Of a stretch of DNA of 58,952 bases, positions 1 to 5,930 are shown in pieces. Source of the DNA: Corynebacterium sp. Lineage in GTDB: Bacteria > Actinomycetota > Actinomycetes > Mycobacteriales > Mycobacteriaceae. Every line of letters begins with the position of its first letter. The first letter of the stretch is position 1. The notes under the pieces are model-generated. The model saw only the letters and a list, made by a program, of their open reading frames with translations, had not been told where the DNA came from and made no database searches. Position numbers and translations under genes: made by a program. The DNA lies in contig NZ_JAUNLS010000001.1 in NCBI RefSeq assembly GCF_030532325.1, positions 151,711-210,662 on the forward strand, read 5' to 3'.

Positions 1-1462
1 ACCAGCATCCTGGATGCCATCCTTATTGGCATCCACCCACGCATAATCACCAATCGAGAAAGTCTTCTCCACCGGAACCACACCAAAATCAACCGTGGTA
101 TCCGAAGCATCAGTCAACTCCACAGTCGACTTCACACCATTGGAATCCTTAGCCGGATCACCACCAGCCTCAGACTTCGTGACCTCAAAACCATCCGGAG
201 TCACAAACTCAACCTCATAAGAACCCGCCGGAAGATTCTCAAACAGGTACTTACCCGAAGCATCAGTCTTGGTACGAGCAACCTCACCATCAGCATCACG
301 CAAAATCACCGTGACACCCACAGCCGGATCCTCACCAGCATCCTGGATGCCATCCTTATTGGCATCCACCCACGCATAATCACCAATCTCGAAGAGTGAG
401 GCAGCCTTCACTCGGAACGGGGCCTCAACGCTCACGTCGGCGCCACGGTCACGGACACCAGAAATGACGTGGAAGTTAATCTGATAGTTCCAATCATAGG
501 GCCGGGCCGGATCACAGTTGCCATCTCGCATGTCCTGTTCCCAGTGAATGGTGGTGCCGTCAGTGATCCAGTTCCGTCCTGTAAAGGAATTAGGATCCGG
601 GTTAAACGGCCAGGAGTGCTTGTAAAGCCACGTTCCGTTGGGAAACGGCACAGAATCATCAACTGGAGGTATGTTCGGGTTATCGGACGCCGAACCCCTC
701 ATTACCTCTTCAGTGATGTCATTGTTGTTCTTGTCTGTAAACCGGAACTTCGGTTCGCCGATCAGCTGGAGACTTTGCTGGTCGGAGCCGATGAAGGCCT
801 CAACGATCCAGGCGCCGTAGCTGCCGCCATGGTAGGTGGTGCTTCCCGTGGCGTGTTGGACACATGCTTGGTCAGTCGGAACAATGTTCGGGTCTCGATC
901 TTCCCAATCTCCGATTGGGGAGATGTAACCCTCCGCGGCTCCCTGAACCTTCATTTCCTGCCCTGCTTGAACATCGGTATTTACGGTCGCCGGAACAGTC
1001 AGGGAGGCATTGAAATTGTCACCGATATGGTCTACAACATCGACGATCCAAGCGCCGGTATTCACATCCTTATAGATGTCCACCTTTTCAGGACGACCCG
1101 ACTTCCAAGTGATGTTATCTTGCGAAATCGGCGCATCGAAAGGGGCGTTGGGATCAGGATTGAGAGCGAAAAGTACCCGAGTAAGGTCCGATTCCCCATA
1201 GTTAGCATACGGATAACTTAGGGGATGCGGTGCAATGGCCTCTAGGTCGAAGGTGTACGAAATCTTCTGCCCCGGCTCAACCTCAGCATCAGAGACGGAT
1301 ACCTCCGCACGGACTTCTGGGCTCTCCCCATCTGGAGTACCGAAGCCATATTCGATAGTCGGATCTTCAATTATGGCTGAGGCAGGACTGCCCCCCCCCT
1401 ACAAACAATGCAACGGACGTTAAGAACGCCAGTGCCCCTTTAGATGATTTTGAAATTCTCAT
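1..1462 (-). pseudogene. SdrD B-like surface protein, frameshifted (possibly phase-OFF), truncated by window edge
   Basis: Read on the minus strand from an ATG at 1462, six bases after a clear GGAGGT ribosome site. The first 21 codons encode a signal-peptide start (MRISKSSKGALAFLTSVALF), then a run of nine G breaks the frame and a TGA follows ten codons later. With eight G the frame joins an uninterrupted reading frame running to position 1: signal-peptide end GGGSPASA, a large extracellular region of about 325 residues with no match I recognise, then SdrD B-type repeats (motif FxIGDYAWVDANKDGIQDAG, seen starting near 396 and again at 60). Such repeats are linkers in Gram-positive wall-anchored adhesins; an LPXTG anchor would lie beyond the left edge. 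I verified codon by codon that no other stop or shift lies between 1390 and 1. Either a contingency gene in the OFF state, a pseudogene, or a base-call error in the tract. Confidence 0.8.
1391..1399 (-). repeat. G9 homopolymer tract in signal-peptide codons
   Basis: Nine C on the plus strand, nine G in the coding strand of the surface protein. Lengths of 8 or 11 would place the gene in frame; 9 and 10 would not. Poly-G tracts of this length are classic slipped-strand contingency sites in other bacteria. Confidence 0.9.
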
Positions 1463-1715
1463 GCAGCGACCTCCACGGTCCCTTCCTGTACTGGAATTTG
1501 GAATGCAGTGACCTCATGCCTACGACAACTCAAACAGGCAGGAAAGTCTTAACTCACTATAAACCAACGATAAGGTAGGTTCCATTCCTAAGAGTTGTCA
1601 TTATGCCAGTTTGCTGCTACCACCTGCACTTTGCAGCGTCGCGCAGTATTAGCCACAGGGAGACTTTTAATCTAAAGCCACCACGCTCTCTGCATGCCTA
1701 GGTATCGTGGCAGCC

Positions 1716-2138
1716 ATGGAAATGAAAGACATGCTTGCCCCCGCCCCCATCAAGCTGCCGGCTGACCCCGGCGCTGAGCACACTGAGGATCTCACCGCGG
1801 GCATCGTAGCCCACCCAAACTCCCCGCTGCTGTGGGCGCTGCTGGCGGAGAAGGAGATTGCCCGCCTGCGCTCCGATGAGGCCATGCCCACCGCCTACAT
1901 AACCGCCTACGCCTACGCGCGTACCGGCTACCACCGCAGCCTGGACCGCCTCCGCGCCAACGGTTGGAAGGGCTGGGGGCCTGTCCCCTTCAGCCACGAG
2001 CCAAACCAGGGCGTGCTGCGTGCCATCGCCGCCCTTGCGCACGCAGCGCAGGCCATCGGCGAGCAGGATGAGTACGACCGCCTGCGTCAGATGCTCTCTG
2101 ATGCTGATCCGGAGTGCGTCGCCAAGCTCTTGGACTAG
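1716..2138 (+). CDS. DUF3151 family protein
   Basis: Soluble protein of 140 residues of unknown function. The pattern AYAYARTGYHRSLDRLRANGWKG followed by GPVPFSHEPNQGVLRAIAALA is the hallmark of the actinobacterial DUF3151 family, of which Mycobacterium tuberculosis Rv0360c is a member. No signal peptide or membrane segment is visible. The ATG at 1716 (MEMKDML) is chosen; a GTG at 1707 and an ATG at 1722 are alternatives, and there is no clear ribosome site, so the mRNA may be nearly leaderless behind the TAGGTAT at 1699-1705. It stands alone, followed by a strong terminator. Confidence 0.85.
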   Translation: MEMKDMLAPAPIKLPADPGAEHTEDLTAGIVAHPNSPLLWALLAEKEIARLRSDEAMPTAYITAYAYARTGYHRSLDRLRANGWKGWGPVPFSHEPNQGVLRAIAALAHAAQAIGEQDEYDRLRQMLSDADPECVAKLLD

Positions 2139-5063: not shown

Positions 5064-5930
5064 GTGGCCGAGTTTGACCCGAATCCCCCTTTCCAGGACT
5101 ACGCGCACCCCGAGCGACTCGTGTCCGCACCGTGGCTCTCCGCACGCCTGGGCACCACCGGGCTGCGCGTCATCGAGGTGGACGAGGACTCCCTCCTCTA
5201 CGACATCGGACACATCCCCACCGCCTCGCGGATCAACTTCCAGACGGAGCTGCTTGATCCGATCACCCGGGATGTTGTCAGCCCGGAGAACTTCACCGCG
5301 CTCATGCGCGAGAAGGGCATCAACCGCGAGGACACCGTGGTCATCTACGGCGATAAGTCCAACTGGTGGGCCGCCTACGCCCTGTGGGTCTTCGAACTCT
5401 ACGGCCACCCGGACGTGCGCCTGCTCGACGGCGGCCGTGATGCCTGGATGACCGAGGAGCGCGACACCTCCTTCATGGTCCCTGACTTCCCCGCTTCCTC
5501 CTACCCGGAGGTGGAGCGCGATGAGTCCAGCCGCATCTTCGTCGACGAGCTACGCAGCTCCACCGCGATGTTGGTGGACACCCGCACTCCCGAGGAGTAC
5601 TTCGGCGAGGCCACCCACAACTCTGGCAGCGGCGAGTCTCCCTACGGCACGACGATGCGCTACGGCCATATCCCCGGCGCCTCCAACTTGGAGTGGGACC
5701 GCGCGGTCTATCCCAACGGCTGCTTCCGCGCGCTGAGCGAGCTGAAGATCAACTACGGCGAGCTGGAGCCGGCCACCGAGACCATCCTCTACTCCCACGT
5801 GGGCGCCCAAGGCGCGCACACCTGGTTCGTGCTCAAGTACCTGCTGGGCTTTGAGAACCCGCGGCTGTATGACGGCTCCTGGGCCGAGTGGGGCAACATG
5901 GTACGCATGCCCGTGGAAAGGGATGCGTAA
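5064..5930 (+). CDS. Rhodanese-like sulfurtransferase, active-site Cys replaced
   Basis: 288 residues with two rhodanese domains: N-terminal (residues 15-130, DIGHIPTASRINFQ) and C-terminal (about 150-285, VDTRTPEEYFG, GHIPGASNLEWDRAV). This is the layout of thiosulfate:cyanide sulfurtransferases. In catalytically active relatives the C-terminal loop reads YCR(I/V)GxR. Here it is YSHVGAQGAHTWF, with Ser at residue 244 where the persulfide Cys should be; the nearest Cys is in NGCFRAL, outside the loop. The family is clear, but thiosulfate sulfurtransferase activity is doubtful. GTG start with AAAGGCAGGCGG upstream. Monocistronic, with a strong terminator downstream. Confidence 0.85.
   Translation: MAEFDPNPPFQDYAHPERLVSAPWLSARLGTTGLRVIEVDEDSLLYDIGHIPTASRINFQTELLDPITRDVVSPENFTALMREKGINREDTVVIYGDKSNWWAAYALWVFELYGHPDVRLLDGGRDAWMTEERDTSFMVPDFPASSYPEVERDESSRIFVDELRSSTAMLVDTRTPEEYFGEATHNSGSGESPYGTTMRYGHIPGASNLEWDRAVYPNGCFRALSELKINYGELEPATETILYSHVGAQGAHTWFVLKYLLGFENPRLYDGSWAEWGNMVRMPVERDA

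What the first reader, a model, noticed from the sequence alone, without database searches (positions are those of the whole stretch)
1..1462. Surface protein gene switched by a G9 tract in its signal peptide
A strong ribosome site and signal-peptide start at 1462 are joined to a long intact SdrD B-repeat protein only if the poly-G at 1391-1399 has 8 (or 11) bases rather than 9. The tract sits exactly in the signal-peptide end, and everything downstream to the window edge is open, including the cleavage motif. That favours a selected ON/OFF switch over decay. A phase-variable wall adhesin would be notable in Corynebacterium.
Basis: partly seen in the sequence, partly recalled or inferred. Interest (0 to 1): 0.85.

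Follow-up and report, generated by a model that had tools for sequence, protein, structure and literature searches.

The report
Surface protein gene with G9 switch
In one Corynebacterium genome a gene for a cell-wall protein is put out of frame by a run of nine Gs in its secretion signal, and a second wall-protein gene in the same genome has the same layout, which suggests a slippage-driven on/off switch of a kind already known from Cutibacterium acnes.

Summary
On the minus strand a good ribosome site, ATG 1462 and a signal-peptide start run into G9 (1391-1399), and this frame stops after 31 codons. From the tract another frame stays open through a Corynebacterium-type N-terminal domain and SdrD_B repeats to a 100-N assembly gap at the window edge. 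Beyond the gap an open piece ends in a sortase signal (LANTG). Relatives read the region as one protein without the tract. The gene is an addition between maf and DUF3151. Of 11 G>=8 tracts in the genome, two (both G9) lie near the 5' end of sortase-anchored wall genes and both break the frame; a G8 does the same in an MFS transporter gene. The genome has NucS and no detectable MutS; in mycobacteria NucS does not repair small indels. A slippage contingency locus is the best explanation (0.6). Length change itself is not shown: no reads or second isolate were available, so slow lineage-level loss and a miscounted homopolymer stay open. The kind is known from C. acnes adhesins; nine searches of a held paper library listed no Corynebacterium case.

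The parts
1470..1474 (-). Ribosome-binding site GGAGG, 7 nt before the ATG
   Evidence: sequence
1367..1462 (-). Leader ORF, 31 codons: signal-peptide start that ends out of frame after the tract
   Evidence: L005 13078-13173
1391..1399 (-). G9 tract at the end of the hydrophobic part of the signal peptide; a TAG at its 5' edge closes the downstream frame towards the start
418..1392 (-). Downstream frame: end of signal peptide (ASA) and N-terminal domain of a Corynebacterium surface-protein family
82..390 (-). SdrD_B repeat domain
   Evidence: PF17210, residues 335-437 of window:1-1392:-
1..57 (-). Start of a further SdrD_B repeat, cut by the window edge and the 100-N assembly gap; the gene continues outside the window to a LANTG sortase signal
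1716..2138 (+). Neighbour gene DUF3151 (PF11349), divergent; with maf on the other side it marks the place where the surface gene was added

Best explanation
A slipped-strand contingency locus. Replication slippage changes the number of Gs in the signal-peptide codons of a sortase-anchored surface protein. At the present length the ribosome leaves the protein's frame inside the signal peptide and stops after 31 codons, so no wall protein is made (OFF); at lengths in register with the downstream frame it is secreted and anchored (ON). Shown here: the anatomy, the out-of-frame state, the single-frame reading in relatives, a second wall gene with the same layout, NucS without detectable MutS. Inferred: that the length changes often enough to switch expression within a population, and that the protein is an adhesin.
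For: Tract exactly between signal peptide and mature protein. Downstream frame open for 464 codons and, past the gap, 405 codons to a sortase signal. The pieces before and after the tract, kept as separate rows, align to consecutive parts of five intact relatives. Second wall gene at C4:33188-33196 with G9 about 36 codons after its signal peptide, also out of frame, followed by 677 open codons to LANTG; six of seven relatives of it read across in one frame and the seventh, G149, is interrupted by a stop codon. Two of nine LPXTG-type hits (chance 2e-5 to 1e-3). NucS present, MutS not found. NucS does not repair 1-2 base indels in M. smegmatis (PMC11551767, passages). Precedent in C. acnes DsA1.
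Against: No length variation was observed. None of 21 homologous loci has the tract at the signal peptide. In C. acnes tract lengths mostly follow clades, read as slow accumulation (PMC4746626). All three 5'-proximal tract genes of this genome that break a frame are OFF at once, which also fits decay or miscounting. The chance estimates are post hoc. Two other genic tracts (G10 in an MFS gene, G7 in a recA-like gene) are in frame and show that genic tracts need not be switches.
Confidence: 0.6

Rival explanations
1. Lineage-level inactivation: the frame breaks at the tracts were fixed by drift or by one-way selection for loss, and the genes are young pseudogenes.
For: Tract lengths in C. acnes mostly follow clades (PMC4746626). 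Two wall genes and one transporter are out of frame together. Homologs of both wall genes are broken elsewhere too: one match in G050 has a TGA, one in G149 a TAG.
Against: No second lesion in 464 and 405 codons of this gene or in 677 codons of the second. The break is at a long G tract in both wall genes, although G>=7 runs are rare, 23 in 2.49 Mb.
Confidence: 0.2
2. Assembly or sequencing error: the true homopolymers are of other lengths and the genes are simply ON.
For: Draft assembly in 33 contigs, with a 100-N gap about 1.4 kb from the tract. Homopolymer indels are a known fault of some platforms in Corynebacterium genomes (PMC5406005, passages). Three genes are broken at G8-G9.
Against: A G10 in another MFS gene and a G7 in a recA-like gene are in frame, so the assembly does not fail at each run. 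An error would still leave a long, slippage-prone G tract in two signal-peptide regions.
Confidence: 0.15
3. Programmed or spontaneous slippage of RNA polymerase or ribosome at the G run gives some protein without any DNA change.
For: A long homopolymer lies directly between the two frames.
Against: No tract in relatives, so no conserved recoding signal; slippage in bacteria is best known at A/T runs (recalled).
Confidence: 0.05

Closest known systems
Cutibacterium (Propionibacterium) acnes DsA1 / PPA2127 (PA-25957) and PPA1880
   Same: Secreted adhesins of an actinobacterium with a G/C homopolymer at the 5' end; DsA1 has a signal peptide, an LPXTG motif and frameshifts in the signal sequence, with strain-specific expression (PMC3224659, PMC5527093; passages).
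   Different: Another genus and another protein (PT repeats there, SdrD_B repeats and a Corynebacterium domain here). Length variation is documented there and not here.
Staphylococcal Sdr proteins (SdrC/SdrD)
   Same: SdrD_B repeats and a sortase signal.
   Different: Unrelated N-terminal domain; whole-protein NCBIfam cut-offs not reached (191 bits against 2500 for SdrD, 181 against 1700 for SdrC).
Homopolymer phase variation in the Mycobacterium tuberculosis complex
   Same: Actinobacterial homopolymer indels left unrepaired in a NucS background (cited in PMC11551767, passages).
   Different: The primary paper is not held; known to me only through that passage and recall.

Membership tests
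Slipped-strand contingency locus (homopolymer phase variation) | Homopolymer at a place where its length sets the reading frame | tested here: met
Slipped-strand contingency locus (homopolymer phase variation) | Otherwise intact gene on both sides of the tract | tested here: met
   the 100-N gap remains unread
Slipped-strand contingency locus (homopolymer phase variation) | Length differs between cells or isolates | not testable with these tools
   no reads held; one genome per species; no match to the domain in genome contigs
Slipped-strand contingency locus (homopolymer phase variation) | Reversible expression change | not testable with these tools
   needs culture work
Slipped-strand contingency locus (homopolymer phase variation) | Indels at the tract escape mismatch repair | tested here: inconclusive
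   NucS present, MutS absent; the inability to repair indels is shown for M. smegmatis, not here
Sortase-anchored wall protein | Signal peptide and C-terminal sorting signal | tested here: met
   TIGR01167 23.1 bits, cut-off 15.9; signal-peptide start seen by eye and by alignment; at present in different frames
Staphylococcal Sdr/MSCRAMM family | SdrD_B repeats | tested here: met
   PF17210
Staphylococcal Sdr/MSCRAMM family | Whole-protein match to SdrC or SdrD | tested here: not met
   191 of 2500 bits and 181 of 1700 bits for the C-terminal piece; the two pieces were scanned apart
Staphylococcal Sdr/MSCRAMM family | Ligand-binding A region of Ig-like domains | tested here: inconclusive
   no Pfam family for the window's own domain; one of 14 members hits Big_8 at E 0.056 and two hit Cohesin at best E 0.0024; structure job not finished

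The most novel reading that the evidence does not exclude
This Corynebacterium carries a small repertoire of G-tract switches (two sortase-anchored surface proteins and an MFS transporter) that slippage flips independently in a cell that has NucS but no MutS, and similar tracts in signal peptides arise repeatedly in the genus, so that surface phase variation is a general but overlooked trait there.
Probability: 0.3. Interest if true: 0.65.

Novelty: new member of a known kind. Interest (0 to 1): 0.48.

Why it matters
If tract lengths vary within populations, a Corynebacterium has stochastic surface variation. Studies on single isolates would then miss proteins that are merely switched off, and annotation would call them pseudogenes. 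It would also make testable whether actinobacteria with NucS and no MutS tolerate more homopolymer switches.

Tried and rejected
Named relatives of the domain: the first genome-contig scan with the N-terminal domain gave none; the second and last went to the DUF3151 neighbour, so homologs of the domain bear no species names. Tract in homologs: none near the start of the match in 21 loci. Three of these (L035, L040, L045) match only from residue 175 on, so their signal region is not covered by that look. Over the whole 21 loci the only G/C run of 7 or more is a G8 in L041, 438 nt before its first match and outside its open frame. Conservation of the G033 tract: only two genomes have that gene, and the G010 copy has no tract. 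Plasmid copies of the domain: none. Promoter and terminator consensus scan of 1300-1800: nothing. Solved structures with the family profile: best E 0.011, ScaE scaffoldin, too weak to use. Genus survey: 76 G/C>=10 tracts in 74 loci from 28 genomes with a rough codon score. The list of places is capped, so this is a partial sample; L063 and L074, from genomes with very many G runs, were left out. Ten genus tracts plus the genome's own C4 tract were read in detail, and I give no rate. An earlier print of the 30 loci was cut. The 25 loci in which maf and DUF3151 lie farther apart hold no match to this gene and no sortase-type end by a simple pattern.

Full report
What is there. The window is contig 33, bases 151711-210662, of a 2.49 Mb draft in 33 contigs. 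It is from a Corynebacterium: the DUF3151 neighbour is 81-90% identical to that of relatives such as C. striatum, C. minutissimum, C. aurimucosum and C. tuberculostearicum. On the minus strand GGAGG lies 7 nt before ATG 1462. The ATG frame encodes a basic start and a hydrophobic stretch, enters G9 at 1391-1399 and ends as a 31-codon ORF. The frame of the large protein has a TAG at the 5' edge of the tract, so no upstream start can enter it; after that it is open for 464 codons to the window edge. The first start codon in it is a GTG at 1083, which would give a protein without a signal peptide.

Left of the window. The window edge is an assembly gap of 100 N (L005 11612-11711) between SdrD_B repeats; 55 nt are identical on its two sides, which explains it and means that the number of repeats is unknown. 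Beyond the gap the same strand has 405 open codons with two more SdrD_B domains, ending in LANTG, a hydrophobic stretch and RRKES, above the cut-off of TIGR01167. So the gene does end in a sortase anchor, and no further disruption was found in what is sequenced.

Which reading is ancestral. The N-terminal domain has matches in 18 other genomes of the 242 searched, at 24-49% identity over the listed stretches; one of them, G050, is itself interrupted by a TGA. In 21 homologous loci no run longer than 6 lies near the start of the match (three of the 21 do not cover the signal region). With the piece before the tract and the piece after it as separate rows, both align to consecutive parts of five intact relatives: signal peptide, AxA, mature domain. 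The present state is therefore a frame break, at the tract, in a protein that relatives read in one frame.

The second gene. The genome has 11 G>=8 tracts (20 overlapping matches): five of 8, four of 9, one of 10, and one of 11 beside an N run. There are 12 of exactly 7. By my reading most of these 23 lie outside genes. One G9, at C4:33188-33196, comes about 36 codons after the signal peptide of another gene; after it a different frame is open for 677 codons to LANTG and RRKES. That domain has matches in 7 other genomes; six of the seven read across the site in one frame, and the seventh, G149, is interrupted by a TAG. None of the seven loci has a G/C run of 7 or more. The N-terminal domains of the two wall proteins are distantly alike (E 3e-6 in a two-sequence comparison). 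Of nine LPXTG hits over cut-off in this genome two are these genes; two others pass only with their neighbours counted. Chance estimates for two of five genic tracts in wall genes are 1.5e-4 by gene count, 9.7e-4 by bases and 1.8e-5 by first 110 codons, with an assumed coding density of 0.88 and 2,300 genes. They are post hoc.

A third frame break, and two tracts that do not break. An MFS transporter gene at C6:12146-12153 is out of frame at a G8 near its 5' end, where the 11 relatives printed read through in one frame. A G10 in another MFS gene (C24:143573) and a G7 in a recA-like gene (my reading of the sequence) are in frame. So the assembly does not fail at each long run, but three OFF genes at once also fit decay or miscounting.

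How it got here. In 38 of the 72 loci fetched with the DUF3151 protein, maf and DUF3151 are less than 250 nt apart; in 25 they are farther apart; in nine one of the two was not found. None of the 72 has a match to this surface gene; two have a G/C run of 8 or more elsewhere. Here 3,245 nt lie between the two genes. The gene is 53-55% G+C against 64% for the window. A gain in this lineage is the simplest reading.

Why slippage is plausible. The genome has NucS (control rings in 7 of 14 genomes) and no MutS match (control rings in 11 of 14). In Mycobacterium smegmatis NucS does not repair 1-2 base indels, and its authors connect this with phase variation at homopolymers (PMC11551767, passages). 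In C. acnes 54 variable tracts were found, 96% G/C and 72.2% between genes, with lengths mostly following clades (PMC4746626; passages and one section). DsA1 there is an LPXTG adhesin with frameshifts in the signal sequence and strain-specific expression (PMC3224659 and PMC5527093, passages). This is the best precedent and also the best caution, since the authors of PMC4746626 favour slow accumulation over active change.

The wider genus. G/C runs of 10 or more occur in 184 of 242 genomes. A partial sample of 76 such tracts from 28 genomes was given a rough codon score, and ten were read in detail. Two of the ten separate gene pieces in different frames: in G033 a C11 right after MKK of a secreted protein, whose only other relative (G010) has an intact signal peptide without a tract, and in G014 a G11 in a DnaE-like gene (my reading). 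So a tract inside a signal peptide occurs at least once more in the genus, but I have no rate.

In print. Nine searches of the held open-licence library with Corynebacterium and terms for phase variation, homopolymer, poly-G, slipped-strand mispairing, LPXTG or sortase listed no paper whose title or abstract start describes a G-tract-switched surface protein in Corynebacterium. I saw listings, and passages of six papers. Most subscription papers are not held, so this is a weak negative.

Verdict. The switch is likely but not shown, and its kind is known.

Noticed in passing
G000:C4:33188-33196 (L006, L207): Second sortase-anchored wall-protein gene with G9 shortly after its signal peptide, also out of frame.
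   Followed up: yes
G000:C6:12146-12153 (L008): G8 near the 5' end of an MFS transporter gene; the frames before and after it do not match, while 11 printed relatives read in one frame.
   Followed up: partly
L082 1501-1511 (genome G033): C11 right after the MKK start of a secreted protein, out of frame; the homolog in G010 has no tract and an intact signal peptide.
   Followed up: partly
L181 1989-1999 (genome G014): A DnaE-like gene (my reading) changes frame at a G11.
   Followed up: no
L041 1062-1069 (genome G199): A homolog of the surface gene has a G8 about 180 nt before its open frame, possibly in the promoter region.
   Followed up: no
L005 10150-10205: A tandem near-duplicate of about 25 nt at the 3' end of maf, at the border of the added gene.
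   Followed up: no
G000:C22, about 5228-5238 (L010): The longest G run of the genome (11) lies beside a run of N upstream of a murI-like gene (my reading), probably an assembly effect.
   Followed up: no
25 of the 72 loci (for example L111, L112): Other Corynebacterium loci hold 0.6-7 kb of unrelated DNA between maf and DUF3151, so the junction may be a frequent place of gain.
   Followed up: partly
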